Below are positions 30,590 to 51,515 of a stretch of DNA of 64,000 nucleotides, one piece after another. Source of the DNA: Romanomermis culicivorax (taxonomy: Eukaryota > Nematoda > Enoplea > Mermithida > Mermithidae); contig CAWUHX010000004.1 of NCBI GenBank assembly GCA_963922205.1, positions 558,001 to 622,000 on the forward strand, given 5' to 3'. The stretch's first letter is position 1. Each line of letters begins with the position of its first letter. The position numbers and the translations under genes were made by a program. The notes below the pieces were generated by a model. It did not search any database. It was not told where the DNA came from and saw only the letters and a list, made by a program, of their open reading frames with translations.

Positions 30590-31500
30590 ACGTTGAAAAG
30601 ATTCATTTTTCAGCATTGTAGAGTATCAAATGGTCACTTTACACAAATTTTTATTCCGAGTGTAAACAAGCGTATTTTCGTGATTTTTTGGTTGAAGGGG
30701 TTTTCGACAGTGGGGAATTCAGTTCCCAATCACTTTACTCAAAAAATTATTTCAAGTGTAAACACATGTGTTTCTGCGATTTTTTGAGAGGAGGGGTTTT
30801 TGACTATGGAAAATTCGATGGATGCAGTCACGCCACACAAAAAAATTCTCTCAAGTGTAAAAAAGGCTATTTCAGCGATTTTCTGTGGAAAGGGTTTTCA
30901 ACGGCGGGGAATTCAATTGATGCGATCACTACACAGAATAATTATCCTGTGTGTAAAACGAAGGTATTTCCATGGTCTTTTATCGGGAGGGGTTTTCGAT
31001 CAATGGGAATTCAATCGATGTGATCACTTTACACACAAAAATATCCCGAGTGTAAACAAGCGTATTTTTTTGATTTTTTGGTGGAAGGGGTTTTCGATCG
31101 AAGCGAATTCAATGGATGCGGTCAGTTTACACACAAAAATCATCATTAATGTAAATGAAGGTACTCCTATGACGTTTTGCAGGTTTGGTTTTTGACCATT
31201 GGTAAATTGATGGATGTAGTCATTCTACACCAAAAATTATCTCAGGTGTAAACAAGCATATTTTTGTGATAATTTGGAGCACAGAGTTTTGGACCACAGG
31301 GAATTCAATGAATGTGATCACTTTACGCACAAAATTATATCGAGTGTATACAAATGTGTTTTTGCCATTTTTGTGGAAGAGGTTTCTGACGATGGGAAAT
31401 TCAATGCACACAGTCACTCCATACAAAAAAATGTTTTTTTGGGTTGGAGAGTTCTTGATCACTGGGAATTCGATAGTAACAGTCACTTTACACTATGTTT
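30590..31500 (+). repeat. Tandem array of 96-99-bp units
   Basis: Unit starts (TGTAAAC or variants) fall at 30661, 30757, 30856, 30952, 31051, 31150, 31247 and 31345, giving spacings of 96, 99, 96, 99, 99, 97 and 98. Each unit contains GGGGTTTTCGA-like and GGGAATTCAATGGATG-like blocks. Overlapping open frames exist on the plus strand because the period is close to a multiple of three. I do not recognise a protein domain. Three units recur at 23341-23548. Confidence 0.8.
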
Positions 31501-31928: not shown

Positions 31929-32065
31929 TAGTCTATCAGAAAATGCCCCGTTGGGGCAGAAAAGAGAAGAATATACTTGCCTGGAAGTCACCAAGCTTGA
32001 AAAAGAAGTGAACTAGATTTTGGAGAACTTGGGTTAAATTTGGAAAAAATTCACTTTTCTAGTGG

Positions 32066-33323
32066 CGTATTCCTAAAACAGCGTTTCCTAAAAGAGCGTT
32101 TCCTGAAAGAGGGTTTCCTAAAACAGCAGATTCCTAAAACAGCAGTTCCCAAAACAGCGGATTCCTAAAACAGTGTTTCCTAAAACAGCAGATTCCTAAA
32201 ACAGCGTTTCCTAAAACAGTGGATTCCTAAAACAGCGTTTCCTGAAACAACGGATTCCTAAAACAGCGTTTCCTAAAACAGCGGATTCCTAAAACAGCGT
32301 TTTCCTACATTAAAAAGATATGTATTAAATCACAATGATGTGTTTCCCATGGTATGCGTTGCAAAGCTACCTCCAGAAGTGCTGTAAAGTGAAGTGTGTA
32401 CGTATTGTGCGAGTGTTAGTCACTTTTTCATTCATTAATAACTGTTTTTTGAAAATGGACGTGTTTAAGACTCAGAAAAAAGTGAATGTTTAAGCTTAGC
32501 TGGCTATTGTTATAGAATTGATTACCGAAAGCCCAAAAAAACGATTTGGCGCTGTACAAAAACAGGCTGCAAGGGAAGTGTTGTAATAAAAAAATGAATG
32601 TTATTGTTTTCTCATTTTGCGCCAAATTGTTTTAGTAGAAAATTGAATGTTACCATTATGTGCTCTCATTTTGTGCCGAAAACCATGCACATAGCTTTTT
32701 TTGTGTTTATTTTAAACGTTTAAGCATCTACAAACGTTTGCATTTGAAAAAACAGTTTTCTTTCAAAAGTCTACAAAAATCTGCATTTTTTGCCTAAAAA
32801 AATAAAAAGCTACTAAAATTTTGCTTCGCATCAATTGACACTTTTTCCATTTTGAAAGAAAAATAGCGAATTTCGCAATGATTAAACCCCCATGCATTTG
32901 CATACGGATAAGACACGTCCTTGGAGAACAATTTCAAAGATAGTGGATATACCCCAGTGACTACATATTTACTAAGTTAATGGTTAGTCATTGTTTGTTT
33001 ATTATGTAACAAAAACAGACACTCTTCATTTAGCAAAATAAACTTTTTCAACAGCGATCTAGTGTAAAGAAACTGAATGACAAATTGTGCCCATATATCA
33101 TATACTAGGAACCGCTGTTTTAGGAAAACGCTGTTTTAGGAAAACGCTGTTTTAGGAATCCGCTGTTTTAGGAAACACTGTTTTAGGAATCGGCTGTTTT
33201 AGGAAACGCTGTTTTAGGAATCCGCTGTTTTAGGAAACACTGTTTTAGGAAATGCTGTTTTAGGAAACGCTGTTTTAGGAAACACTGTTTTAGGAAACGC
33301 TGTTTTAGGAACTGCTGTTTTAG
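32066..33323. mobile_element. Foldback-like element with tandem-repeat inverted arms
   Basis: The left arm (32066-32310) is about 15 units of a 15-16-base motif, ATTCCTAAAACAGCG alternating with TTTCCTAAAACAGCGG. The right arm (33107-33323) is about 14 units of the reverse complement, CGCTGTTTTAGGAAT and variants. Between them lie about 800 bases of AT-rich sequence with no gene. Long inverted arms made of short tandem units are the layout of foldback transposons. No target-site duplication was recognised at the edges. Open frames reading repeated PKTAF-like peptides are products of the repeat. Confidence 0.65.
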
Positions 33324-34974: not shown

Positions 34975-35215
34975 ATATGCATGGCAAGAATTTTCGACTT
35001 TTCATCTTGGTGGTGGGGAGATGGGTGTGGGCGAGCAGAAAAAACAGAAAAAAAGCTCCGCAACCACATGTTTAATGCAAAATATGCAAAAATCATAAAA
35101 ATGCTGTCCTAGAGAATGTTTGGGGGGAGTATTGAACTTTTTTGGGCCAGGGGGTGTACAGGGTCTCAGGTAGGAGGGTCTACCCTCAACCCCACCCAAC
35201 CCCCTATGTGCATGT
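34975..35215 (-). repeat. Dispersed repeat family R3, copy 2
   Basis: This is the reverse-oriented match to 2842-3065. It has GGGTCTCAGG, complementary to the CCTGAGACCC landmark, and GGCAAGAATTTTC, complementary to the other end. It lies about 70 bp upstream of F-box copy D. Confidence 0.55.
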
Positions 35216-35284
35216 CATTCTCTTCTGCAAGTAAAATTCTCTTTTGTTCAGATAGTAAGAATCACCATCGATCGCTTTATTGAT

Positions 35285-36195
35285 ATGGATGATGTCCTCA
35301 TTATTAGGGAAATCTTAAAATATTTTGATTTCGAACAATTGTGCATAGCGGAGCGAATAAATTCCAATTTCAGAAGTTGCGTTGAATCGGAGTTGTATCA
35401 GTTACAATACGTCAATTTTGATCAAATACATACTTTTTTCTGGAAGAATGTTATGGGCAAAATTCAAAGATTTTGTTCTCGTCTGCATCATTTGAAAAAT
35501 TTAAACTTGCTCTGGAAAAAAGGGTTGTTTGATTCACCTGAGCCATCGATAGTTGCGAATTTTACTGAAAATTTCCTTATCCTTCTTCCAAGTTTACAAA
35601 AATTAATATCTTTGAAAATGTACTCATTTTTGTGATTCATTTCCCTGGGAAAATGTATTGGACTTTGCGGAAAATTGTCGTAATTTGCGGAAACTTAGTG
35701 TGTATATGGGCGGGAGTGAATTATTCAACAATGAAATATGAGAGAGAATAAATAAACTTATTATAGGCCATTCCACCTTGATGAAATTGGAAATTATCAG
35801 AGGTGATGATTTATGGATTGATTTATCATTGTGTCGAAATTTAATTCATTTTACATTGGAATTGGATGAAGGAATGGACAGTCGAAAATACGAACAATTG
35901 TTGTCATTGCTCGATTTTAATTTGAATTTAGAAAATCTGAATTTTGTTAAGGTATCACATAGTAATCGTCAGCTGATCGAAAAGTTGATGAAGTTGATGC
36001 CAAAGTTGAAAAGTTTGTTCTTGGACATTTGTCAGTCTGACACCGACCTCGATGAAGATTCCGATTTACCTTACCACAGAATTAGGAAAGATTTATATTT
36101 CATTTCTTTGCAAAATATCAAGGTTGGCTGTGAGAAATTCGAAAGTCACGCAAAATTTGTTGCTTTTCTATTATCTCGTTGTCCCTGTTGAAACA
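35285..36195 (+). pseudogene. F-box/LRR gene, copy D, broken
   Basis: The ATG at 35285 starts MDDVLIIREILKYF, closely matching copy A, and runs about 115 codons. A T-homopolymer near 35628 then shifts the frame. The next segment carries a TGA near 35740 where copy A has CGA (Arg). The third segment (35778-36191) is open and holds the WIDLSLCRNLIHFTLEL and KLKSLFLDI repeats. A one-base deletion near 36188 shifts it again, and homology stops near 36205. Exon 2 is absent, and the gypsy element starts 65 bp further on. It shares the upstream TTTTGTTCAG with copy A. It is a pseudogene by at least three lesions. Confidence 0.8.
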
Positions 36196-36269
36196 ATTTT
36201 CTTTGCTGGTACCTAGTGCTTCACACCAGGTACCCGGGTCTTTCGGGTACCCGGGTAGACCGGGGTATA

Positions 36270-36746
36270 TGTTAGGCTGCTGTGGGGTCAAGAAGATGCA
36301 ACAGTTCTGACCACAGGCTAACAACAACAACAACCACAAACCTCTCCCAGATGTTTCACCAGATACTCGCCAGAACTTTCACCAAACCTCGGGCAGAACA
36401 CCTTGGCACGTACCTCAGGAGATCCTACCCAAGTCTCCAAACCTAAACTTATAAGAGCCTCCCCTGCCCTCACAAAACAAAACAACTTACAGGTTCAAGT
36501 TGTATTGGGTGACGAGTGGCGATGCCAAATAAATAATAATAAACAAAATATTATAAACAAGGCGATGGTGGCATCGCTCCATAAAACGAATCTTTTTAAC
36601 ACTGATAAAAAGACACAAAAAACGCGAAACAGTGGCAGCATAATTCTATGCAAATTATCTTTCTCTTTCAGCCACTTTTTGCCGCGTCCAACTGCCTGTG
36701 CACCGACGCCGGAAGCTGAACACGTGCACCTGAGACCACCTCAACA
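36270..36746 (-). repeat. 3' LTR of the gypsy element
   Basis: It starts and ends with TGTT...AACA (TGTTAGG at 36270 and CAACA at 36742-36746, plus-strand reading). It is roughly 90-95 percent identical to the partner LTR by eye, including a 3-bp difference in an AAC run. On the transcribed strand it contains a GTAAGT string at 36490-36485, conserved in the other LTR. Confidence 0.9.
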
Positions 36747-36759
36747 TCCCTCAGCCCTC
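36747..36759 (-). other. Candidate polypurine tract
   Basis: Read on the minus strand the 13 bases next to the 3' LTR are GAGGGCTGAGGGA. They are mostly purine, as expected for the plus-strand primer of reverse transcription. Confidence 0.45.
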
Positions 36760-37487
36760 AAAACCGACCGACGGGAGGTGAAAACCTTTCTGCAGCCTGA
36801 GTCTCATACTGAGGCCCCGACTGCATAACAGTTTTCCCCTCGGAAAACAAATTTTTGGGGCTACCCCCTCCAAAATGTGATCCAGCCCCTACCAGGTCCT
36901 TCAGGTGATAGCGACCTTGACCAATCCATTGGGCAGGGCAACTTTTTCAGGCTACTGGAAACGATCATGAACGTAGTTCGGCCTGGACTTTGACGTCGAT
37001 CTGTGCCTAGATCCAGGGCGTCGCCATTCCTCTTCTCCCGTGTACTGGTTTTTACAGCTTTGGTGATGAGGTACCCCAGGTGCGCTTCCTCCACGGTCGG
37101 CCGCTCGCCACGTCGCTCCGTCCAATACAAATGTACTCAGTAAAAAACATTTTCTATAAAATACTTCAATTTTACGAAATAAATTTTATAAATGCAAATA
37201 AAAATTTTCATGCCTTCATCTTTTTCAGGCCCTGAAAGTAAACGAGAAAAATACGAGGGCTATGTACACGCCCGAAATAAGATGGACAGAAAGACGAATT
37301 TCGCCGGGCAACTTTTGGGCACCGGAAACGAGAAAAAATTTTAAAATTTAAAGCAACAATAAAACGAGATAATATATTTTTTTTTGTATTTTGTATTTTA
37401 TTTGTGTTTTTGTATTTTTGTATTTTTTGAAATAAAATTTGTACGAAATAATTAATTTTGGTCCAAAAATTGAGCGGCTATATGAAA
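36760..37487. other. 3' untranslated part of the gypsy element
   Basis: This lies between the Gly/Arg-rich ORF and the 3' LTR. A minus-strand open frame at 36861-37130 has no ATG and no known motif. The rest is AT-rich with T runs. Confidence 0.4.
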
Positions 37488-40400
37488 TTATTGTTGCCCG
37501 CCGCCACCATAACCGCCGTATTGGAAGCTACCACAGCGAGGGTAGGGTCCACCCTGAGCTCCACAACCCCTGAGGAATCCCCCAAAAACTCCTCGAGGCT
37601 GGGCCGCACGAGGGGGTCCGCCCATCACCTGTCCTCCATACGGTATCGCCTGTCCTCTATACGCCTGTCCTCTATACCATTTTGAAGGGTCTTCCTTGAC
37701 CCTGTCCCTGACCTCGGCCTCGGCCATATCCCCCTTTAGTTCCCCTCTGGTATGAGCCCTGAGTGGAACTTACGGAAGATACTCCAGAAGCTGAGGTACT
37801 GGACTTCCCTTGACTCTGTTGATTTGCATACGGTAATTTGAATACTCCAGGCTGGTGCTGACCCTGCGAGTGAGACGATTGTTGCGAGTGCTGGCTCCTA
37901 GACCTGGATGTATCTCTAGGTTGTCTCTCCGTTAAAATGGGAATCTTGAAGGGTTGCCCCTCCTCATCCTCGGCCTTCTGGAATTTACCAGAAAATTTCT
38001 GAACCATATCTGACAACCTTCTTTTCACTGCAGTTTGTTGGTGTTCCTGCATTCTGTTGGCATACGCTTCCCTGAATGCAGTACTACCTTCTCACAGCAG
38101 GTAGATAGAATAATACCTTTCCGTAACAAATGACTTGGCCCGTGCATCCACTGCACCAATATGTCTTGGGCCCAACTGCTGCTGTTCTAACTTTAGCAAC
38201 ACCATGGTACATAGGTATCTCACGGCTGCCATAACTATTTCCGCATCAAAATGATGAAACCAATTTGGCATGAACTTGAGCCAAATATACTCCCAAATGG
38301 GCTCAGGAAGGTTTACATGATCATACAGGAAACCACCTTGAAGATCAAAGTGATCCCCATAGTTCTCGTAAAGCTCCTCTACTCCATTATTCACCAATGC
38401 CCAGATGATTTGATTCCTATTATCATCTGGCATATCCTGAGCAAAGAATTCGATCACCTCTGGTGTCGAAAAATCTATTCTTCCCTTCACTATGGGAAAC
38501 TTCTTATGGACATCCCAGTAGTCTCTCAAAACAGAACTCAGGTACTCCAAAGTTACTTCCTTATCTCTACTTCTCTTGACCGATTTAGTCGGTTCCGACG
38601 TAGAGGGTTTAGAAATAACTTTTTTCCCTGCGGAACTGCTCTGGTTCTGCTGAGAAGTCTTATCCACTTTAGACACGGGCGTAGCCAAAGTACTTTTCAT
38701 CGTTGCACTTACCTGAGATGCAGACGATTTACTAGGCACTTTAGCCGAAGCAACCGTCGACTGCACTTGACTCGTAGAACTTTTGGTTCCAGGCATCAGG
38801 CTCATCGGCGTAGTTCCAGTCTTGGACTTGGTTGAATCCATCAATAAAGTAGTAGATCCTGCAAACTTCAAGTCCACAGACGTAGAACTCCCTGTCTGTT
38901 CTCCTTCACCATCACTAATTTCAATAACATCTTCTTCATCTCTCCTCTTAGCCCTATTGGCCCTTCGGGCTTACTTCCTCCTTCCTAATCTTTTAATCTG
39001 ATCGTCCGTATGACCTTCCGCTCTAAATTTTCTAACTTCTTCCGCAGTATACATTCCTGGTATACCACCGTCTATACTTGGATCTCTGGGTGCTACTTGA
39101 ACTGTCGGCGTAACCTTGCTGATGGCAGGTTGGATGACCTGCGTACTAGCAGGCTGCGCTGGCAATTTCGGGATATGATAAGCAGTAGGCGGCTTGGCCG
39201 GAGCTTGCATGACTGTAGGCGCTGCCAGAGGTGTCGGCTGCGCCATAATACCAGCCAATACCTGCTCCAGCTGCTTCTGCTGCTGATCTAATCTCGCTTT
39301 TTGCTCCGCAAGCTGTTTAGCGAAAACCTCTTTCTGCCTTTCGATTTCCTTTTCAGCTCGCTCCCTGAGCCTTGCTTCAATTCCCTCTATTGTTGTACTT
39401 GCAGCAATCGTTATCAGATTGCTTTCATCCAGCATTTGCTCTGCCCTGACATCCATTCCAGAAAGTAGACTCTCTGTCTGATCTACTAAAGAGGTTACCT
39501 GTGTTTCTTGATCAGGCTGTATCAACGATTCAACAGTGACCTCCTTGTCCACTTCTAAATCGTCTCCTACCTGATTCAAGTCTATGGGGGGTGTTGAGGT
39601 CTGCAGGTATCGCTTGTTGCTGTGCTTTCGCCGCAACAGGCCCAGCCTGCATCCCCTGCACCTGATCCAAACTACTCATGTCAACTCCAGATTGCTGACT
39701 CACCGTTGTGCTTACCTCAGTGCCTGTAACCGGCACTGCTGGCTGCTTACCTGTCGGTGTCACTACAACCTTATCGCCAATATGCGTAATTTGAAAACCT
39801 GGAGCATCCAACAGCAATATCGGCTCAAAAAATGGCGGCTCGTAACCTGGAACGTATTCCGGTTGATATGCTAACACGCTCTTCTTCTGATTCTCCTTCG
39901 TTGCGTCCTCACTCATATCTATTGGGTATCGCAAACCTGGAACTCGGACAGCTATTTGGCGGAAGTAAAACCTCTGATAGCAGTACGGATTATCTTTGTA
40001 CTGCGGACACTCCGCCAAATGCTTCCTCTTATCTTCCGGTCTTTGCTCCCATGATTTGGTCTTGGGCCAAAATCGGATCGGCAAAAATCCGAAACAATTT
40101 CCCCAACATGTAATCGCATCGCCCTTTGTTGGCGTATGCACCTCCTTTACTGGAAGACTATTCAAAAATGACAAGTACAGACCGTACCTATCTCCCCTCC
40201 ACAACATCTTCAAGAGTTGTTCCTTTCCCTCAGGGCTAAAGGATCTCAAATAGTTATGGTCAAGGAGAGAGGTAAGGTACTCTTCCGCTTCCTCTCTACA
40301 AGCTGGCCAAAATAAATGAAACGTAAGCGGAACTTTGTTACACACTGACTCCAAATTCTTAAAATTGTCCTCAATCAATATTTCAGAATAAGGAGCGATA

Positions 40401-40770
40401 TCCATACTCCAGTGTTGTCTTACGTACGAGTCTTTACCATTCGAAACTCTGACTGGTTCATACTCGTGGTAATCAACTTCCAGAGATGTTATCTCCAACA
40501 ACTGTTTCATTTCTTTCCTATACCTTAGGAAATTCTCGTACAACATCATAGATACTGGTTCATCAAGTCTACTGAAACTCTTCCCTTGATTCACCATATC
40601 TACGACCTTCTTTGTAATTCGAGTTCTAATCTGCTTTTCTGACAAAGCTTCTTCAAACTCTTCATCCTCACTTACTGTATCGTACCCGTCCACATTCTTA
40701 CTTTTTTCTTTGACGGTATAATCGGGATGAATACCTTTAGGTATACTTACTTCTCTCCCTCTCTTCGGAT
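37488..40770 (-). pseudogene. Long accessory protein of the gypsy element, Gly/Arg-rich tail (ORF-X)
   Basis: Five minus-strand segments join into one former protein of about 1090 codons. (1) 40770-39600: a globular region with FHLFWPACREEAEEYL and a CPQYKDNPYC pair of cysteines, then a Gln/Pro linker. (2) To 38971: a charged coiled-coil-like stretch ([17 protein letters not shown]) and a Pro/Ala-rich part. (3) To 38092: a Ser/Thr-rich linker and a helical domain with VLRDYWDVHKKFP. (4) To 37672: a basic Ser/Gln part ending in GYGRGRGQGQGQGRP. (5) To 37488: a GGY-rich end. Breaks are a six-base homopolymer shift at 39586-39591, an in-frame TAA at 38971-38973, an in-frame TGA at 38092-38094, and a homopolymer shift at 37680-37683. 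The frame overlaps the end of the exonuclease ORF. No transmembrane or signal segment is seen, so it is not an envelope. The tail suggests RNA binding. The family is unknown to me. Confidence 0.6.
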
Positions 40771-40777
40771 TTGACTC

Positions 40778-41808
40778 CTAATGAGGGAAGCTGTACTGCG
40801 TATAGCCTCCAAATGAGGTATCCATTTGGGCAGCCATACGGGCATACACCTCCTGTCTCATCACGTGATAAATAGCCGATGACTGCGGCTCTTCCACTTC
40901 TGGACTTCCGCAAAAGGTCTGCCGAAAATTTTCACCATGTATCATGTTAAAAAACCTATATAGCCTGAAAGCCATTATCTGAATCTGATCTGCTTTCATC
41001 AAATCATGCGGAAAATATTGGAATCCGACCTCGACTTCCATAGCTAACTCATAGTGGAAAAACGCTAGGAAAACCAACAATGAGTAGTAGGCGTCCAGTG
41101 CTGAATACCGTATTTCAAACTGCGTTAATGTGTGCCTACAGAATCGCTCACGTTGCGCACTCTGACGGAAATCGACTTGGAAATAACCGATGTCCGCCAG
41201 ATACAGCTCCCTGAACAACCCTTTCAGCTTAAAAGTCTCCGGGCAAAGTCCCAACTTTCTGGACATTGCCAAAAATCATCCGTTCAACTGGTCTCCTACC
41301 TTGGCTACGTCATAATAACGGCCATACGAAGATGTTACTCTATGCTTGATCTCCGGTGTTAGAACAACATCTTGGTGCTTTCTGCCTGCGCCATTAACAT
41401 TCCAGATGGCAACCAGATCTGTAACCAAGTTGTATCCAACGAGAAGCATGTCCGAATCTAAGAGCTCATGAATGAGCGTCCATTCCTTCGGCATGATTGT
41501 CGTAGTATCTACAACAAAAGTGTCTCCAGTCACCGTCGAGAAGCTAATGACTCTCGCGAACTCCTTCCCTTTTGAGTTATCAACTCCAGAAGTCGCGAAA
41601 ACCTTACTCACATACTCTTGAGTAACTTTCTCTGTATCAAACCCGATAATTGGCTGTCCTTGAAACCCACTCTCCTTCAAGGTTTTGATCATTTCAGCCA
41701 CCTTACCTATTTCGACCATTTTCGGTTCCGTCAATTCCAAGGGAAATCTTCTGAAATTCGTGGCGAACCATCATTCCAATTCGTGGACTCTGACAATGCG
41801 TTTAACAT
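40778..41808 (-). pseudogene. DEDDy 3'-5' exonuclease-like ORF of the gypsy element
   Basis: Counting from the ATG at 41719, the 313-codon frame shows the three exonuclease motifs of the RNase D/WRN/Egalitarian type. Motif I is IIGFDTE (D28, E30). Motif II is LLVGYNLVTDL (N97, D101). Motif III is RYSALDAYYSLLVF (Y205, D209), whose Y-x3-D spacing defines the DEDDy class. The frame is cut by one in-frame TGA at codon 148 (41276-41278), between motifs II and III, and otherwise runs to 40778. An ATG at 41808, just after an acceptor-like TTTTTTAG, would add about 25 residues if one base were lost near 41745. This family removes nucleotides from RNA or DNA 3' ends with two metal ions. The substrate here is unknown. 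It sits between integrase and ORF-X, where other elements carry env. Confidence 0.7.
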
Positions 41809-41814
41809 TGTAGT

Positions 41815-42153
41815 CTAAAAAATTCAGGCAAAATGTTTACAACTTTTTAATGAGAATTTCTCGAAGTGGACACATATCGGTTAGATTCTACCTTCACCAC
41901 AGATAGTAAGCACAAAAAAGGAAAAAGAAAAATTGCAAGCAGGGGACAATAAGGTACCAAACATATATTGGGTTAGTGTTGGTAGATACTTAAACACAAG
42001 TGTGGCCCCGACTTCTACCTTATACGGGAGTACACGCACAGACCACCTGCGTCTTCCATCATTCAACTGCTAGCCGTCTCAATCCAACGCCCAAAACGGC
42101 CTATCCAACTAATAAATTAAGAATTTCCAAGAAGACTTTTAAAAAATACTTAC
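41815..42153 (-). other. Candidate splice signals upstream of the exonuclease ORF
   Basis: On the minus strand a consensus donor GTAAGT lies at 42153-42148. A pyrimidine-rich acceptor TTTTTTAG ends at 41815, seven bases before an ATG. The acceptor could also receive the GTAAGT donor present in the 5' LTR (50010-50005). Either would give a subgenomic mRNA for the downstream genes. This is inference from consensus strings only. Confidence 0.35.
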
Positions 42154-43064
42154 TATTTTAGCCAAAATGAGGAAATTCGTAGAAAATTAGATAAAGATGG
42201 AATATTTTAAAATTTAAATAAATTTGAAATTATCTACCCCTAGTCGACTAGTTGCTACACTCCACTTCTTCCCCATCACATAGACGAATTTATCCAACTC
42301 GCTATGTGTGTAGAGGAATAATGTAGTTTCCCAAAAAGTCCAAATTTTGCGCTACGGGCAGCTTTGCCGCACTTTTCCAAGTTGACAGAACAAATTTGTT
42401 CCCACTAATCTTTTACAATTGTCTAGGCCTTCATCTAGACACCCGTGGGCTATAACATCCTGCTTTGCCCAATAAATTTTAAGATTAACTAAGTTTAAAA
42501 ACTTAGGTCGCTTACCATCGACTAAAACATACTGATTATTTTGTGGGGGTCCGTGACCAAATATTGTTTTGTCTGGCGTCCATTGGGGGGCCGGGACATT
42601 TCTTCCGCTTCTTTCTCAAATTCTTACAATTTGGCACTGTCAATTTTCGAAAATTTTTTAAAATTTTTTAAGAGCTGAAAAATCGACAAATTTTCGGCTT
42701 TTGCTACTTTTTGTCTTTTTTCACTCTAAAACTCAGCGGTTTTCCAATTCTTCCAATATTCACAGAATTGGTGGGCAACAACTACTATTTCCTCCGAAAA
42801 AATTAATCGGACTCGGGGAAATTTAAAATTTTGGGCCGCCAAAAAATTTTAAGAATTTGGGTTTTTTGCGAAGAGTGCTTTTTTACCAAGAATTTTTGAA
42901 AATTTAAAGATTTACGCAAGGGAATATTAAAAATACACGATAAATACATAAATAAATACAATTAAATACAATTTGTACCTAAATACACAATTTGGGACGA
43001 AAAAATATGGGGGGGGGGGGTAATCACATGCACACACACAAAAAACACAGCGCTAAGTGCTATG
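42154..43064. other. Spacer between integrase and exonuclease ORFs
   Basis: No ATG-started gene is recognised. About 88 open codons lie on the minus strand near 42617-42355, containing VLVDGKRPKFLNLVN-like sequence without a start codon, and may be an exon. A 12-base G run followed by a short CA repeat lies near 43010-43045. Confidence 0.35.
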
Positions 43065-45995
43065 GCAGTTTATAATTACTAATTTTTGAATCTACAGTAA
43101 ACTGTGCGTCCTTAGATGACACGTTGTTAGACTCCAGCCATCTGCCGGTCTCGTAGCGAAAGTGTTTTAACCTGCTCACAGATACCACCTGCTTTTTCAG
43201 CGGCTCTCTCCAGTGCGCAATTTCAAGCACATTCTCTGATAATCTCCTATTATCAGTAACAACTTACGGTCCTTGCCACAGCAGACCCAGTTTTTTCTGT
43301 TTATCGACTTTCAGCAAAACCCAATCATTGACGGAATAATCATGAGCTTTTGCTTTACGGTCAAAAAACTTTTTACAGTTCTCCGCAGCTTTCCTGATAT
43401 TCTCTGAAATGACTTCATAAGTTTCTACTAAACTTTGGGTTAGTATATGCTTATAAGCCTCATAGTTCATTGGCAGAACTATATTTCTTGTAACACCAAT
43501 ACTAATGCCAAAATTAGCCTCATGACCTTTCAGTAAGGCAAATGGAGAACATCTCGTTGAGGTATGAGGTGTGGCATTGTAAGCAAAAACGACAGATTGC
43601 AAATATCTGTCCCACTTGTCTGAATCTTCTATAGCAACCTTTTGCAACTGCTTGATCAAGGTTTGGTTAAATCTTTCAACCATTCCATTTCCTTGTGGAT
43701 GGTAGGCAGTTGTGAAAATCTTCTGACACTCCAATAATTTACACACTGACATCATCAGATCAGCTGTAAAGCATGAACCATTATCACTCAACAATTTCAC
43801 CGGGGTCCCATGCCTGAACACAATATTTTGAAGAAAACTGTCCACAATGGTTACAGCAGATTGATCAGGAATCATTTCTGCTTCCACCCATTTTGTAAAG
43901 TAATCTTGAAATACTATCACATATGGTCTCTTCTCACTCATGGGAGAAATTCCTACAATATCCACAGAGACTATGTCAAATGGTCCTCTAGGAATAATTG
44001 GATTTAACGGCCGTATAGTAGCCTTTCCTGGAGTCGCAATTTGACATATCGGACAAAAGCTGATCCAGCTCCGAACATCCTTTTCGATGCTCAGCCACCG
44101 GAACCGCTTTTTAATAATAGCAAGGGTTCTCTTAAACCCTTGATGCGTCATCATCACTGCTCCATGATACTGATGTAGGACAACTTTTTTGAGAACAGAG
44201 GGCACAACAACTTGATCCTCTGCCTCGCCAAAAGTCTCTCTATGTAGTATCCCTTGATCAATATAAAAGTTACTTTGAGACTTGGTGCCACTATTAGCAC
44301 CTAGTTTCTCGAAGATCACCTTTAAATCTTTATCCTTTCCTTGCAACTGCGCCATCAAGGCGTTTGAGATAAGCCCTTTCGGTCTACCATCTTCAATTTG
44401 AGGGGCTTCTTCAAACTCCTTCTCCTTCGGTTCAAAAATTCTCTTCACTTGCTCTTTAGATTTAGCTTGCCCAGGAGGATGTCGTTTTTCCTCCTGCTGC
44501 AAGTTTTTTGCCATTTGTCTAGTGACTACCGCCTCAATTTCATATTTCTCAGGTGTTTGATAATTATCAAATTCTATAGAAATATTAAGTCGAGTTTCAT
44601 CACTAACAGTATACTTTGAAGCCACTGAAGCTGTGGCCATCTTCACCGAAGTGAAGACTCCTACAGCCTCATCCACTTCATCTCCTCTGAGTCTCCGAAG
44701 TTGATTCACTAAAACTTTGTGGTTTTGGTTAATGACTTCGTCTTCAGCAAGAGATTTTACTTCTCCTTTCTGAAAGATAAGTTCCCATTTCGGTGGCAAC
44801 TTCTCCTTCTGTTCATCCGGTTCCTCCTTCCTGGAGAGAAAATCAGCCATGGCATTTTGTCTGCCAGGCATGTACTCCAACTTGTGATTAAACTGACAAA
44901 CGAATGCATACCACCTCTTGAGTTTGTCATTAGTCTGTGTGTTGACCCTCATTGATAATAATGGTTTGTGGTCAGTTTGAATCCTGACCTTTTGGCCCAA
45001 AAGATAATGTTTATAAATTTTTAGGTTTTATTCCACAGCTAAGCATTCCCTTTCGGTGGCACACCATTTCCTTTCTTCCGCCCGCAATATCCTACTATTG
45101 TAGGCTATCACCCAACGTTCCGAGTCAGTCTCTTGACATAACACTGCTCCCAATGCAATTCCACTGGCATCCATTTGGAGAATGAATCTGGCAGATCCAT
45201 CTAGAATTGGATGCTGTAAGAAAGGCACTGAGGTCAATGCTACTTTGAGCTTCTCAAAAGTTTGGTAAGGTAACTCCGTCACGTTCCACACTCCCTTCTT
45301 GCCTGTTAATTTGTACAAAGGTTCAGCTAGTGCTGCTAAGTCCGGTATAAATTTCTTACACCATTGTAGCATACCTAGGAATCTTTGCATTTTCTTAACA
45401 GAATCCAGGAATGGAAATTCTGTTATTGCTTCGACCTTCTTAGGATCGGGAGAAATTCCATTCGCATCCAAGATGTGTCCTAAAAAGTGCACTTTCTCGG
45501 GAAGAAATTCACATTTCTCTGGCTTAAGAGTCAACTTCGCCTTCCTCAACACTTCTAGCACCAATTTCAAATTCTCTAAGTGTTCCTCGAACGTATTTGA
45601 GAAGATGATAATATCATCCATGTACACTAGGCAAATTTTCCATACCAAATCCCCAAGGATTCTCTCCATCATCCTTTGGAATTCAGCCGGTGCATTCTTC
45701 AACCCAAACGGCATCACACTAAACTGAAACAAGCCCTCTTGGCATATAAAAGCCGTTTTCTCCTTGCTCTCCTCCTCCATCGGGACCTGCCAATATCCCG
45801 ACTTCAAATCTGGAGTTCTAAATAGTCATCCATTCTCGGGATGGGATATTTATCATCCTTGGTCACTTCGTTTATACCTCTAAAATCAACTACTGGTCTC
45901 GTAGTTCCATCTTTCTTTCCAACTAGGAACAAGGGTGCAGCCCACGGTGACTTCGAGGGCTCGATCACTCCCTGATCCAACATCTCCTTTATATG
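43065..45995 (-). pseudogene. Gypsy pol: reverse transcriptase, RNase H, integrase (broken)
   Basis: Reading down the minus strand, the RT fingers region (PIPRMDDYLE) is followed by a small deletion with frame change at about 45808-45815, where the first catalytic Asp block is expected. RT resumes with SGYWQVPMEEE, VMPFGLKNAP and the intact YMDD box near 45620. RNase H follows with FILQMDASG and RECLAVE, then a TAA at 45028-45030, then TDHKPLLSM in the same frame. Integrase has an H/CPIC zinc region, VSVDIVG, LLSDNG and MVERFNQTL, the DDE-type core. The C-terminal GPY/F module reads WQGP then TAA (43264-43266) and continues with VVTDNRRLSENVLEI to about 43065. It copies element RNA into DNA and integrates it, but is inactive here. 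Confidence 0.9.
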
Positions 45996-48900
45996 TCACC
46001 TCACTCCAGGCCGACTATTAATTGAAGCTCTGTAATATCTCTTTGCTACAGGTCTTGCATCTCCTGTATCTATCTTGCATGTCAGAGCTGGGGTTGTAGT
46101 AGCCGGATCACCAGGCAAGCTGAAGACATCTCTGTATTTCAACAAAGACTCTATAGCTTTTGTCTCCTGCTCTTCCGATATTTTCACCTTTGATATCATC
46201 TTGCATAGTGAAGTATAGAACTCTACAGAATCGGATTTTGATAATGCAGGCATTCCTTCCTTTACCATACAGGTCTGATATTCCTTTTCCTCCTTTATCC
46301 TTTTCATTTCCTTCACCTTCTTGTATGTATCATCATCTTCAATAAGCATAGATTCTGTATAGCCAATGATTTGATCTCTCTCAAACCGACAACCAGAACC
46401 TCTGTTATTGGAGATTAGTACTACAAACTCGTCTTTTGATCTGTCTACAACTGCTTTCTCCATTCTGAACTTCCTTTCAGAATCTTTTGATTCGACAATA
46501 ATTCCGTTCAACGTGGCATCTCCATGTTGATCCCAAAATTTTGCCTTCATCAAAACATCTGTTCCATATGAAATGTAGGTTTTACTACATGCAACAATTG
46601 CAACAGTTGTCTTTAGCAGACAAACTTTTGGATAAACAATTTGATTTATACAATCAGTCGACGCCACACTGACTTTAGTCACTTCTTCCATTACCGTTTG
46701 CACAGTAGTTACAAAAGGAACTTGAACTACGTCAATCTTCTTCTCAATGCCCTGTATCATCATGGCATTTCTTTTAAAATCAATCACCACACCTAAATCT
46801 GGGTGTGCTAAAAAATCTGTGCCCAAGATCAGGTCCTCACCTGCATCTGGCAACACTATAGCATTGACTGGAAAATGTCCAAATTCAGTCTTCATACAAA
46901 CTGGTACATACCCATAGGCATGCACAATTTTTCCATCAGCTACAGTCACTTTAAGAATACGAGGGTACACTGTATAATCAACGTCTAATGCCCTTTTCAG
47001 GAGCTTAGAAGACATGACCGTACACTGAGCTCCTGTATCAATTAAAGCTCTGGTAGCCGTTTCTTTAATAACTACATTTATGTAGAAAGGAACCGTTTTC
47101 GCATAATCTTCCAACAATCTTTTCTCTATGTCCGTTGCTTTCCTTCCATACTTCACATGAGCCAAATCTCTTTCCTTTACCTTTTCTAGAGGTGTCACCT
47201 TATCCAGGTGAATAATACTTCCCAGAACCAAACTAGAAGATTTGCTTCTACTCTGATCGCTTTCATCATCCACATCCATACGGCTTGTCACCATTACGTT
47301 ATGCGAACTAGGTTGCGACTGGTTGGAAACAAATGATCCAGATTGATCCTGGACGGTACTAGCCTGAATAGCCAGTTGACTAGTTGACCCAGATAGCATC
47401 AACTGAGGCTGCCTCTGCAACTGTATGCCTTGCTCTCTAAGTCTGCAGAATTCCCTGTATCTCTCAAATTCTGGGTCATACCCATACATTTGATCTTCTT
47501 CGGGGAATCCTACATAATAGGCACCTGTTCCTCTTCCTCTAAATCCAAATTGAGGTCCACCTCTACCTCTAAAACTTCCTCTAAATGTTGCATTCCTATC
47601 ACCACCATAATACTGATTAGGCAAGCCACGGTTAAATCCACCGCGTTGCTGTTGCTGACGCAGGTATGCTAATGTTTTACACTCTTCCGTAGCATGGGTA
47701 TTATTCTTATGATATATGCAGTAGGGCCTCTGCTGCTTCAACGGCTTCTGCTTTTCAGCAGACGCAGTCTTCACAGTAGTCAACTCCTTTAAAGCTTCAT
47801 TCTGAGTAACCTGTAATTTATCCACTTTCTGAACCAATTGTAGCCATTCCTTTGAGAGAATAGCTAAAAAAGACTCCTTGGCCTGCTCCTCGTTAGACTT
47901 TTTGACATCAGGAGGCGATGGGCCAGGTTGCATCTCTTCAGCATTCTCCTCACTTCTCTCCTCTTCCACTGCCTTTTGCAACTGATTTTGTGGTCTTGAC
48001 TTCCTCTGGTTATACTTTTTAGTACTTCCATATGGAGCATTCCCTACAAAGGCAATTTCCGGGCACTTCTCTTCCATAGCTACAACTTGATTCACCACAA
48101 TCGGTTTATCCTTGGCTCCAAAAGTAGTAAACACATTCTTATACTTCTTATCAATCTGAGTTACAGCGTATGCAAGGTCTTGCCATGTTTTCATCGATGG
48201 CAATACGTCCTGCAACTCTGTCTGATATAACGGACTACTTTTATAAATGAAGGCATTAATAATATTCTCTTGCCTTACTTGATCACTCTGATCTGCATAG
48301 ACCAGATCCACATGATTACTCAACCTCTTTAAAAACTCTAAGGCTGACTCGCCTTCCTCCTGTTTCATATTGAATAGCTCTCTCTTGAGCATCGTCAAAT
48401 CATAAGTCGGCGCGAGATACTTTAAAATATTTCTCCGTGCTTCTATATAACTTGAGGATGTTCTCGCTATCCTCCTTGCTGTATTCTGAGACAACCATCT
48501 CAAACACTCCTTCTTTACTTTATCCGCAGTGTTCTCCGCAAACTCACTTTCCAGATCAGTAAAAAATTTCAACGCCTCCGTCGGCTTTATACTATCATGT
48601 AAAGGTCTATGTTTCAAGGCCTTTACCACATCTCTCACATCAACTTCTACACTTGAGCTAGAGTACGACGTAGATGAACTGCTATTATCACTATCCGAGT
48701 AATGTCTACTCCTAGCTCTAGATCTGTGAGATCTCCTTCTACTCTTGGACTTCCTCTTTCTCCTCTTCTCAGGGCTAAGGTCAGCTCTATTTGCGGTATC
48801 TCTCCAAGGAGTAGGACGAGAAAATCTGTCCTCTCCCTGGGACGATTCGTCGCAAATAGTCACCTTCCTTTCCCTAGACCTCCTATTCTCTGAGTAACCG

Positions 48901-49322
48901 TAGGCATTCGATTGTGCTTGTTCAGCATTCCTCGAACTCTGCGGCTCCTCAGTCCAACCTCTATCTCTACTCAAATATTTGTCTCTATCCTCTTGAGACC
49001 TTATATAAACCTCTGAATGAACCTCCCTCTTAGGTTCACTTGCCCTTTCTACTCTATTCTCAATGTAAGAAGACTCACCTATCTTCTTCCGTTGATCTTC
49101 TTCCTTTTCCTTTTCTCGCTCCTGCGTTGTTTCGATAACTTTAATTAATAATTCCATTTTCTTTTCCAGCGCATTAATTGGCAAATCCTTGGGATCGACT
49201 CGATCCCTTTGCTCCTCTCGTCGAATAAAATTCGCCATTCCGGGGTCGTATCGCCTCGAATATTTATCGTCCTATAAAACCACCGGCCCGTCCTCATAAT
49301 ATTTGTCATAATTCATATCCAT
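45996..49322 (-). pseudogene. Gypsy gag-protease, in one frame with pol (broken)
   Basis: An ATG at 49322 begins gag, with an in-frame TAG at codon 17 (49272-49274). The frame is then open for about 1080 codons from 49238. It holds an N-terminal charged coiled-coil-like region, an Arg/Ser-rich patch ([17 protein letters not shown]), and a capsid-like domain around [13 protein letters not shown] to [14 protein letters not shown]. There is a [14 protein letters not shown] knuckle (C-H-H-C) and an aspartic protease with [14 protein letters not shown] near 47040 and [11 protein letters not shown]. It reaches the RT connection ([10 protein letters not shown]) and ends at a TGA (45996-45998) preceding HIKEMLDQGVI of RT in the same frame. 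Gag and pol therefore appear to have been a single reading frame, with no frameshift between them. Confidence 0.85.
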
Positions 49323-49684
49323 CATGTTTGACCTCCACCCGGTTTCGACTTCCCTCTAATCTCCTCCAGCGTCTCGGCCATCGGATGGACCAACTTCGGG
49401 GGCGATGTCGGTCTCTCTCTCTCAAAGGTCTGCTGACCTCTGACACTACCACTTACCATAGTTTCAACCTCGGCTTGCCTAGCCATCTCAAAACCACTTC
49501 TCCTCAACTCTTCTTCCATTCTTGCCACTTCAGCATTTCTACTCTCTCTCCTTCCTTCAGTCTCAGGTGCCTGTGCTTGAACCTGTTCTACCGCTGCGTG
49601 TTCTTCAGCAGAGTCGAGATTCGAAACACTAGGTTCATGTGACCTAGGAGGAGTCCTCAAAGTTTTCCCTACCGGAATACTCAT
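49322..49684 (-). CDS. Small leader ORF of the gypsy element, upstream of gag
   Basis: A 120-codon frame begins with ATG at 49684 (MSIPVGKTLRTPPRSH) and ends at a TGA whose last base is the first base of the gag ATG (TGATG at 49324-49320). That arrangement permits termination-reinitiation. The product is hydrophilic, Glu/Arg-rich and likely helical in the middle (VARMEEELRRSGFEMARQ), with no known domain. It is the only ORF of the element without a lesion. It could be an N-terminal gag part or a separate small protein. Confidence 0.55.
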   Translation of the reverse strand: MSIPVGKTLRTPPRSHEPSVSNLDSAEEHAAVEQVQAQAPETEGRRESRNAEVARMEEELRRSGFEMARQAEVETMVSGSVRGQQTFERERPTSPPKLVHPMAETLEEIRGKSKPGGGQT

Positions 49685-49772
49685 CTTCTTAATTTTTCCA
49701 GTATGTGCCTGTAAATAAAACCCAGGAGGTTTAGTTATTTTTCTGGTGGTTCTCCGGTTATCTCTCGTGAGA

Positions 49773-49790
49773 GGCGTTAAGAGTCCACCA
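49773..49790 (-). other. Candidate primer-binding site
   Basis: Two bases inside the 5' LTR the minus strand reads TGGTGGACTCTTAACGCC. It begins with the TGG expected to pair with a tRNA CCA end. I could not identify the tRNA. Confidence 0.45.
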
Positions 49791-49792
49791 CT

Positions 49793-50266
49793 TGTTAGGC
49801 AGCTGTGGGGTCAAGACGATGCAACAGTTCTGACCACAGGCTAACAACAACAACCACAAAACTCTCCCAGACGTTTCACCTGATACTCGCCAGAACTTTC
49901 ACTAAACCTCAGGCAGAACACCTTGGCACGTACCTCAGGAGATCCTACCCAAGTCTCCAAACCTAATCTTAAAAACTCCAACCCCTATGCTCACAAAACA
50001 ATACACTTACGGGTTCAAGATGTATTGGGTGACGAGTGGCCACGCCAAACAAACAATAATAAACAAAAATAGTGTATAAAGGCGATGGGGGCGTCGCTCC
50101 ATAAAACGAATCTTTTTAACACTAATAAAAAGACACAAAAATCGCGAAACAGTGGCAGCATAAATCTATGCAAATTATCATTTTCTTTTCACCACTTTTT
50201 GCCGCGTCCAACCACCTGCGCACCAACGCCGGAAGGTGAACACGTGCACCTGGAGCCACCCCAACA
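49793..50266 (-). repeat. 5' LTR of the gypsy element
   Basis: This is the 474-bp partner of 36270-36746 with the same TGTT...AACA ends. On the transcribed strand a TTTATACACTA string near 50075 could be a TATA box. CCCGTAAGT at 50013-50005 is a strong splice-donor match, conserved in both LTRs. Confidence 0.9.
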
Positions 50267-51368
50267 GACATTCAACTCCGGAAGGAGGGAAATGTAATGT
50301 ACCTGCTAAAGCAGTACTGTAAATATATGGCATACTGTGTGTGATAAACATTTATTAAATATTATTCATTTTCGTACTTTATCCTCTCAAGGGTGTCTGG
50401 GATTCACACCCAAACATTCCTATAAAATTACATGAAGTACTTTATTTTGATCCGTTCACACCCCAGTAGCCCATTTAAGATGCCCTAATTAATTTGTACA
50501 AATGGCAGCTGGTCCCCTATAACCTACACTAAACCACACATTCCACGGCTGCCGTAATCCCCCGTAAAAATCGTAAACAACACCTGCACACAGTAAAATA
50601 AGTAAAAGCCCCGCCAGACAGTAGTCTCAAGTGCAAGGGTAGGGACGGCCCCACAAAACATGTGTATTCAGAGAAACAGATACAGGAAGCATGCACAGAA
50701 GCACAGAGGTGTGGCTAAGCCCACTGTAGGAAGCAGGCAAGACACGAAAAGCATGCCGTACTAGAATAGCATTGAAAGGCGTGACTAAATTAGCAAGGAT
50801 AGTAAAGCAGGAAGCGGCAATTGGCGGAAGAAGATGGACAGAAGCAAGACCTCCCGCGATGCCCAGGGAGTGGCCAAAAACGTCGTATTTAAAGAGAAGC
50901 AAAGCGTGGTTTTTGTCATTATTATTCATAGCCTTAAATTCGTTTTTCGCAATCGTTTTATATTTGCAAGCTGCCATTTTTACGAAAGCATTTAAATGGA
51001 GGCCCATTCGTGTATTTGCAAACCGAGACTCCGCTCTTGTGTATTATTGTCGACGTCTCAGAGCAGCCGTCGATTTGTATCGTATCGCCCCATATTGTGA
51101 ATCGCCCGTCTCCCTCGCCCTGTTTCGTTGCCCTAACAGCATGTTTATTTATGAATTCTGCATGCTAAGTGCAAGTATTATGCACAAGAAGAAAAAGATC
51201 CACAGCAATGCTCCAAATAAAGGTCCATAAAGAGTTTTTTTAAATTTTCTCTGAATATAAGATTTTTTCACTGGTGCAGTTAGTACTATGTTTTAGATCA
51301 AGCCATAAAGCCATGTCAGAAATCTGGCGATTTGTGCCAAAATGTGTGACCGTGTTGAAAATTTATTA
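50267..51368. other. Spacer between gypsy and Harbinger elements
   Basis: GC-richer than its surroundings in parts. An open frame at 50772-51230 (plus) ends in the dispersed repeat R2 (51130-51290, inverted relative to 400-580) and matches no protein I know. It could be part of another retroelement's LTR or leader. Confidence 0.35.
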
Positions 51369-51515
51369 TTTTGAGAATCTGTTCTGATACTTTGCTGAGC
51401 TGTTTTGAGAATCGCTGGATTAAGAATCACTATGTTGAGATTTCGCTGTTTTGAGACTTCGCTGAATTGAGAATCGCTATTTTGAGAATCACTGTGTGTG
51501 TTTCGCTGAATTGGG
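51369..51515 (+). repeat. Short tandem array related to the foldback unit
   Basis: About eight degenerate 15-16-base units of CGCTGTTTTGAGAAT lie here. They resemble the foldback arm unit CGCTGTTTTAGGAAT of 33107-33323. No inverted partner was seen. The array lies about 100 bp left of the Harbinger element. Confidence 0.6.

What the first reader, a model, noticed from the sequence alone, without database searches (positions are those of the whole stretch)
40778..41808. A gypsy retrotransposon carrying its own DEDDy 3'-5' exonuclease-like gene
Seen: between integrase and the 3' LTR, a frame has D-x-E, N-x3-D and Y-x3-D motifs in the right order and spacing for RNase D/WRN/Egalitarian-type exonucleases, broken only by one TGA. 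Known: Ty3/gypsy elements normally carry env or nothing here, and I know of no described gypsy lineage with this domain. Inference: the enzyme could trim cDNA or RNA ends, or act against host small RNAs.
Basis: partly seen in the sequence, partly recalled or inferred. Interest (0 to 1): 0.88.

Follow-up and report, generated by a model that had tools for sequence, protein, structure and literature searches.

The report
Nematode gypsy retrotransposon with own exonuclease
An abundant jumping element in a mosquito-parasitic nematode carries a gene for a nuclease-like protein that selection has kept intact in many copies; similar add-on genes were already reported from rotifer elements, so this is a new variant of a known kind.

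Summary
The motifs are real. Between integrase and 3' LTR of a minus-strand Ty3/gypsy element (LTRs 36270-36746, 49793-50266), window 41770-40778 holds D-x-E, N-x3-D and Y-x3-D in DEDDy order. The host assembly matches Romanomermis culicivorax, a mermithid nematode. It is no one-off capture: 62 of 150 scored copies have the frame open over at least 1395 codons, and 86 of 86 integrase copies checked (of 109 listed) have it about 1.5 kb downstream. 36 of 37 copies keep all six motif residues; nine intact copies show purifying selection (ratio 0.12). Pfam PF01612 matches weakly, below its cut-off where shown; an independent profile ranks 12 of 12 copies above 2000 shuffles. A second gypsy family carries a clearer DEDDy ORF3; the one copy seen whole shows no RT domain but near-identical LTRs. 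The claim that no such lineage is described is wrong: rotifer LTR elements have DEDDy ORF3s (PMC5408684). New here: nematode host, 1445-codon ORF3, selection evidence. Catalysis and role are untested.

The parts
49793..50266 (-). 5' LTR (474 bp)
   Evidence: 89% identical to 36270-36746 over 479 aligned columns; begins TGTT, ends AACA
49773..49790 (-). primer-binding-site-like stretch (TGGTGGACTC...) 2 nt after the 5' LTR
   Evidence: sequence and leader alignment of 5 copies; the matching tRNA was not identified
45996..49684 (-). gag and protease; start ATG inferred at 49684; window frame broken upstream of 49271
   Evidence: leader alignment; stop-to-stop ORF 49271-45996; gag-asp_proteas E 9e-10
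45028..45995 (-). reverse transcriptase and start of RNase H (window copy in pieces)
   Evidence: RVT_1 E 2.6e-32; best PDB match Ty3 RT 4ol8, E 2.9e-49
43060..45027 (-). end of RNase H and integrase
   Evidence: H2C2 E 7.7e-15, rve E 1e-12; a 2258-codon open frame holds the integrase in many other copies
41815..41822 (-). TTTTTTAG, a 3' splice-acceptor-like site just downstream of the TAA that closes the ORF3 frame
   Evidence: present in 12 of 12 copies compared; use as a splice site is inferred
40778..41770 (-). DEDDy exonuclease-like N-terminal part of ORF3; D-x-E 41638-41630, N-x3-D 41431-41417, Y-x3-D 41107-41093; TGA at 41278-41276
37488..40777 (-). rest of ORF3, broken in the window (40777-39530, 39675-38971, 38970-38092, 38091-37672, 37769-37488): middle region, coiled-coil-like linker (by eye), C-terminal region, RG/GY-rich tail
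   Evidence: matches the intact 1445-codon frames; no Pfam family over its cut-off
36270..36746 (-). 3' LTR (477 bp)

Best explanation
A Ty3/gypsy LTR retrotransposon family of Romanomermis culicivorax has, in the position where env or ORF3 genes sit, a third gene of about 1445 codons whose N-terminal quarter is a divergent DEDDy (RNase D/WRN/MUT-7 type) 3'-5' exonuclease domain. Shown: it is a standing part of the element, present in many copies and kept by selection for its amino-acid sequence. Inferred: it is made from a spliced mRNA (the coding signal starts at a conserved acceptor-like site, upstream of any shared in-frame ATG) and is catalytically active. Inferred and least certain: it joins the element's own RNP through its long RG-rich C-terminal part and trims 3' ends of element RNA or single-stranded cDNA during replication, acting mostly for the element that encodes it, since an apparently RT-less relative that moved recently still keeps its exonuclease ORF3. 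My estimates: about 0.95 that it is a real, selected element gene, 0.9 that it has the DEDDy fold, 0.75 that it is catalytic, 0.4 that its main role is 3'-end processing for the element.
For: Copies: 62 of 150 scored places have a frame of at least 1395 codons, 56 exactly 1445 (counted). Linkage: 74 of 109 listed integrase places have a listed ORF3 hit at a fixed 1.48-1.56 kb; of the other 35, 12 were fetched and 12 of 12 have it too, 2 of them only over its first 162 residues; 23 not checked. Motif residues: all six in 36 of 37 distinct copies. Selection, 9 intact copies: exonuclease ratio 0.124; segregating changes 43 syn:16 non (first part) and 17:9 (second part, outside the search query); ORF3 residues 40-1445 293:144, binomial p 6.5e-91. 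Recent movement: LTRs 100% identical in C511 (478 of 478), 99.4% in C135, 99.0% in C348, each with a 1445-codon ORF3; 4-bp target duplication in 4 of 4 resolved pairs, the 5' LTR of a fifth not found. Second family: PF01612 best E 4.2e-14; profile matches WRN (E 8.8e-6) and mut-7 (1.2e-4); catalytic positions invariant in 9 of 9; LTR pieces 100% and 99.6% identical in the copy seen whole, with no RVT match in the ORFs scanned; ORF3 of 4 copies of that type, one of them the copy seen whole, 85 syn:29 non, ratio 0.10. First- and second-family exonuclease regions: 4 of 2000 shuffles reach the real score.
Against: The window's own halves give no Pfam match or E 0.072; three full-length intact ORF3s give PF01612 at E 0.033-0.13; the domain piece of L031 17.7 bits against 23.6. 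The window copy is not among the 80 places found by a PF01612 search of the genome. PDB: only chance hits for the window half, EXD2 and heme oxygenase both at E 1.9 for the L031 piece, nothing for the A1 profile. hhalign against the second family (prob 5, E 0.0078) and RNase D (prob 0.2) is weak, with Neff 1. The noncoding spacer differs by only 0.066 between copies, less than synonymous sites (0.14); against that yardstick the exonuclease ratio is about 0.27, not 0.12. 5 of 37 copies share a TGA at one CGA codon that removes the third motif, and 9 of 150 places have the 230-codon frame that this stop gives, so a sublineage may have spread without an intact exonuclease, unless that codon mutated repeatedly. 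The 37 copies are 93-100% identical in DNA to L031, so motif conservation within the family is weak evidence alone. The second family was found by a PF01612 search, so its match to PF01612 is by selection. 'RT-less' rests on one copy seen whole. The only GTRAG donor found in the leader is in the wrong phase for the acceptor. Nothing shows expression or activity.
Confidence: 0.6

Rival explanations
1. Counter-silencing: the ORF3 nuclease degrades or trims host small RNAs (or their precursors) that silence the element.
For: DEDD nucleases act in small-RNA pathways elsewhere (recalled: ERI-1, MUT-7). The host is reported to lack Piwi and piRNAs and to have no 5'-triphosphate small RNAs (PMC4323106, passages) and to have the highest DNA methylation among the few nematodes where it was found (PMC8821070, passages), so it has other defences that an element could attack.
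Against: No piRNAs are reported there to attack; MUT-7 promotes silencing (recalled); a trans-acting suppressor would help all elements, so its upkeep in an RT-less relative is less easily explained.
Confidence: 0.2
2. Non-catalytic RNA-binding or structural role of a DEDDy fold, as Rodriguez et al. note for Maelstrom and EXD1.
For: Long extra regions and RG/GY-rich tail (27 K+R against 8 D+E, 34 G in 175 residues); the C-terminal region is the most constrained part (7 nonsynonymous of 45 changes).
Against: All catalytic positions kept in 36 of 37 copies and invariant in 9 of 9 of the distant second family, which a pure binding role would not need.
Confidence: 0.15
3. One-off capture of a host exonuclease exon by this copy, with no role.
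For: The window copy is broken, its LTRs are only 89% identical and no target duplication was seen.
Against: ORF3 at fixed spacing in 86 of 86 checked integrase copies of 109 listed, intact frames and purifying selection.
Confidence: 0.01
4. Env-like protein: ORF3 is a divergent envelope and the exonuclease likeness is accidental.
For: Env position and likely spliced expression.
Against: No strong transmembrane stretch (best Kyte-Doolittle 19-residue mean 1.58) and only 2 N-glycosylation sites in 1445 residues of L031; all DEDDy motifs in order.
Confidence: 0.04

Closest known systems
DEDDy ORF3s of bdelloid rotifer LTR retrotransposons Juno and Vesta (Rodriguez et al. 2017, PMC5408684; abstract, passages, section 13 seen)
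   Same: LTR retrotransposon with a third ORF downstream of pol that resembles RNase D-like DEDDy exonucleases, found in more than one family of one genome
   Different: Nematode host; a 1445-codon ORF3 (rotifer ORF lengths not seen); here the motif residues are canonical D, E, D, Y, D, whereas the paper says DEDD is changed to DEED; purifying selection measured here, while the paper's sequencing section covers only env and GDSL ORFs and its discussion reports no clear departure from neutrality. Sequence kinship with the rotifer ORFs was not tested
Athena/Terminon retroelements of rotifers (PMC5408684 and PMC6431247, passages)
   Same: Retroelements that carry DEDDy ORFs among accessory genes
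   Different: Penelope-like RT and not LTR gypsy elements
Cellular RNase D, WRN exonuclease, MUT-7/EXD, Rrp6 (PF01612)
   Same: Order of D-x-E, D and Y-x3-D motifs; PF01612 is the family matched
   Different: Window family scores below the Pfam cut-off where the score is shown; element-encoded, followed by about 1100 residues without known domains
Ty3/gypsy elements with env or no third gene (recalled)
   Same: PR-RT-RNaseH-IN order, LTRs, RT closest to Ty3
   Different: Nuclease-like ORF3 in place of env

Membership tests
Ty3/gypsy LTR retrotransposon | RT of the Ty3 type | tested here: met
   Best PDB matches 4ol8 (E 2.9e-49) and 7q5b (Ty3 Gag-Pol)
Ty3/gypsy LTR retrotransposon | Gene order PR-RT-RNaseH-IN between LTRs | tested here: met
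Ty3/gypsy LTR retrotransposon | Short target-site duplication | tested here: met
   4 bp in 4 of 4 resolved other copies, a fifth not resolved; not seen at the window copy
DEDDy 3'-5' exonuclease (PF01612) | D-x-E, D, Y-x3-D motifs in order | tested here: met
   36 of 37 copies keep all six motif residues
DEDDy 3'-5' exonuclease (PF01612) | Pfam curated score | tested here: not met
   17.7 bits against 23.6 in L031; scores of the other 11 members were not shown, best E 1.8e-4. The second family passes
DEDDy 3'-5' exonuclease (PF01612) | Match to an independent DEDDy profile above chance | tested here: met
   12 of 12 above 2000 shuffles; hhalign alone was weak
DEDDy 3'-5' exonuclease (PF01612) | RNase H-like fold with DEDD site | not testable with these tools
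   Structure prediction switched off
DEDDy 3'-5' exonuclease (PF01612) | Metal-dependent 3'-5' exonuclease activity | not testable with these tools
   Needs a bench assay
Retroelement DEDDy ORF3 group of Rodriguez et al. 2017 | Third ORF 3' of pol in an LTR element | tested here: met
   86 of 86 checked integrase copies of 109 listed
Retroelement DEDDy ORF3 group of Rodriguez et al. 2017 | Closer kinship to other retroelement DEDDy ORFs than to cellular ones | not tested
   Rotifer sequences were not fetched; A1 and A2 searches returned only R. culicivorax proteins (3 of 3 and 14 of 14)
Envelope (env) gene | Transmembrane segment and glycosylation | tested here: not met
   Max hydropathy 1.58, 2 N-glycosylation sites; a crude test

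The most novel reading that the evidence does not exclude
In a nematode without piRNAs, two diverged gypsy families each depend on an element-encoded DEDDy nuclease that works in cis on their own RNP, or disarms the host's remaining small-RNA/DNA-methylation silencing, so that even an element that lost its reverse transcriptase must keep it.
Probability: 0.2. Interest if true: 0.8.

Novelty: new variant of a known kind. Interest (0 to 1): 0.5.

Why it matters
DEDDy ORF3s were reported from rotifer retroelements, with no measured selection on them in the parts I read. Here they occur in a second animal phylum, in a high-copy family with very recent insertions, under purifying selection, and in an apparently RT-less relative. 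That makes the question of what such nucleases do for retroelements testable: there are many intact natural copies, recent insertions, and a natural group of copies that lack the third motif.

Tried and rejected
One-off host capture: rejected by the copies. Independent evidence by structure: tool off. Protein-database relatives outside the host: none for ORF3 residues 1-380 at E 1e-3 among 1510 candidates; A1 gave 3 hits and A2 14, all named R. culicivorax (for A2 only the 8000 best candidates were scored). Common origin of the whole ORF3s of the two families: the C-terminal likeness is not significant (146 of 3000 shuffles reach it), nor is the middle (213 of 500). Gag donor joined to the ORF3 acceptor: phase does not fit. 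Rfam families in 35000-51500: 0 at gathering scores. Host SL RNA, 18S rRNA and the P0002 subfamily search did not complete; the host was named instead from protein hits and from assembly size and scaffold number. E. coli-type RNase D as profile: 80 of 202 loci kept, all enterobacteria; I aligned 18 of them plus E. coli, a shallow profile. Rows dropped before counts: for selection I used 9 of 12 intact copies, leaving out the three of other length (L038, L043, L044); for residues 10-39, 11 of 12 (the broken L042 left out); for the second family's domain 8 of 9, L056 left out (178 syn:53 non, ratio 0.086). Literature on this in nematodes: searches; judged by titles and starts of abstracts, none is about DEDDy or exonuclease ORFs in nematode LTR elements. 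PMC5718144, which holds the word DEDDy, was not opened. Absence in print is claimed only for those searches. In alignment A1 column 1 shows M where most copies have TTG; this is the tool's start-codon reading, corrected from the raw codons.

Full report
What is there. The window lies in an assembly of 359,112,060 bases in 595 contigs, the size and scaffold number given for Romanomermis culicivorax v2 (359.1 Mb, 595; PMC10879605, passages); the 3 and 14 protein relatives found are all named as that species. On the minus strand a Ty3/gypsy element runs from a 5' LTR at 50266-49793 to a 3' LTR at 36746-36270 (89% identical), with gag-protease, RT, RNase H and integrase in order. The integrase frame ends at 43060. 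About 1.2 kb further on starts a third frame, ORF3, whose broken remains reach 37488.

The observation. In 9 of 14 copies fetched (chosen to include intact and broken ones; 7 of the 14 places also lie among the 30 loci) the frame is open for exactly 1445 codons; 3 more have 1418, 1449 and 1468; 2 are broken. The TGA of the window at codon 148 of the domain is found in no other of 37 distinct copies (44 loci, 7 of them repeats of the same place).

Is it an exonuclease domain? The window's own halves are weak: no family and PF01612 at E 0.072. In intact copies 12 of 12 match PF01612 at E up to 1, best 1.8e-4, and the one score shown (17.7 bits) is below the curated cut-off of 23.6; over the whole 1445-residue protein the E-values are 0.033-0.13. 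A profile made without this family, from the second family plus RNase D, ranks all 12 above 2000 shuffles and, in the two alignments printed, lines up the three motifs. Pairwise, the two families' regions score 54, reached by 4 of 2000 shuffles. Against this, hhalign with such shallow alignments was weak, PDB searches gave nothing useful, the window copy is not among the 80 places of a genome search with PF01612, and no structure could be predicted. The reading as a divergent DEDDy domain is therefore well supported but not proven.

Is it part of the element? Yes. Of 150 scored places (2593 first-look candidates) 62 have at least 1395 open codons. Of 109 scored integrase places (7925 candidates) 74 have a listed ORF3 hit at 1.48-1.56 kb; of the 35 others 12 were looked at and all 12 have it, 2 of them matching over the first 162 residues only; 23 were not checked. 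Three of four dated copies with intact ORF3 have LTRs 99-100% identical (the fourth 93.6%), and all four have 4-bp target duplications; in a fifth the 5' LTR was not found. The window copy itself is old and lacks a visible duplication.

Is it under selection? Among nine intact copies the nonsynonymous/synonymous ratio is 0.12 in the exonuclease part, 0.14 overall and 0.05 in the C-terminal region. The second part of the exonuclease region, which was not in the search query and so is free of that bias, gives 0.13. These copies were picked for open frames, which excludes stops but does not by itself produce this ratio. A caution: the noncoding spacer between integrase and ORF3 differs by 0.066 on average, less than synonymous sites (0.14), so with the spacer as yardstick the exonuclease ratio would be about 0.27. 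Catalytic residues: 36 of 37 copies keep all six; one has E30K. A shared TGA at a CGA codon in 5 of 37 copies is unexplained: inherited, or repeated CpG decay in a host with DNA methylation (PMC8821070, passages).

How it may be expressed. In 11 of 12 copies the first 42 codons of the frame hold no ATG, yet residues 10-39 show 13 synonymous against 1 nonsynonymous change among 11 copies, and a TTTTTTAG follows the closing TAA in 12 of 12. This suggests an upstream coding exon joined by splicing, as for env genes. The donor is not known: the conserved GTAAGT in gag is in another phase. A non-ATG start is not excluded.

The second family. A PF01612 search of the genome gave 80 matches among 119 candidates. 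Eleven were opened (L045-L054 and L056; the other 69 were not) and share one ORF3 type, up to about 614 codons; an integrase-like frame was seen upstream, by eye, in 8 of the 10 loci L045-L054, and the two compared by BLAST are 27-39% identical to the first family's integrase where aligned. Its exonuclease part passes Pfam clearly (by selection, since PF01612 found it), its profile finds WRN, MUT-7 and Rrp6, and its catalytic residues are invariant in 9 of 9. In the one copy seen whole the LTR pieces are 100% and 99.6% identical, and the ORFs scanned hold a zinc knuckle, RNase H and integrase zinc-binding matches but no RT. ORF3 of four copies of that type, one of them this copy, shows 85 synonymous against 29 nonsynonymous changes; whether the other three lack RT was not examined. 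If confirmed on more copies, an RT-less element that still keeps its nuclease argues for a cis-acting role.

Mechanism. I commit to 3'-end processing of element RNA or single-stranded cDNA in cis as the most likely role (about 0.4), with counter-silencing and non-catalytic binding as rivals. Rodriguez et al. suggested 3'-end processing of retrotransposon RNAs and also discussed post-transcriptional silencing. R. culicivorax is reported to lack Piwi, piRNAs and 5'-triphosphate small RNAs (PMC4323106, passages), so a piRNA target is unlikely here.

Novelty. DEDDy ORF3s in LTR retrotransposons are known from bdelloid rotifers (PMC5408684: abstract, passages and section 13 seen), and a DnaQ-like 3'-5' exonuclease is cited as a known accessory domain of LTR elements in PMC6338049 (passages). 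My searches, judged by titles and starts of abstracts, listed none about nematodes. I file this as a new variant of a known kind.

Noticed in passing
G000:C69, loci L143 4526-6000, L055 and L144 1-251: Second gypsy family with a DEDDy ORF3; this copy has near-identical LTRs (about 620 bp) but no RT domain in the ORFs scanned, so it looks like a recently moved non-autonomous element.
   Followed up: partly
L004, L006, L009, L012, L022 (codon 192 of the domain): Five copies share a CGA to TGA stop that cuts off the third motif; 9 of 150 places have a 230-codon frame as this stop gives. Inherited or repeated CpG decay is not settled.
   Followed up: partly
P0016 (UniRef gene model of R. culicivorax): A predicted 470-residue protein joins a DEDDh RNase_T domain to a piece of the second family's ORF3; either an element inside a host gene or a gene-model artefact.
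   Followed up: no
window 32065-32307 and 33106-33323: Two 31/15-bp tandem arrays in inverted orientation about 0.8 kb apart, up to 95% complementary.
   Followed up: no
window 30634-31353: Tandem array of about seven diverged 98-bp units.
   Followed up: no
window 35174-36191: F-box-like open frames (likeness recalled, not searched) directly beside the 3' LTR.
   Followed up: no
window 42352-42615, minus strand: An 87-codon open frame in the spacer between integrase and ORF3.
   Followed up: no
L031-L040 spacer between integrase and ORF3: The noncoding spacer of about 1.2 kb is less diverged between copies (0.066) than synonymous sites of ORF3 (0.14), which hints at constraint in the spacer or a faster change at synonymous sites.
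   Followed up: no
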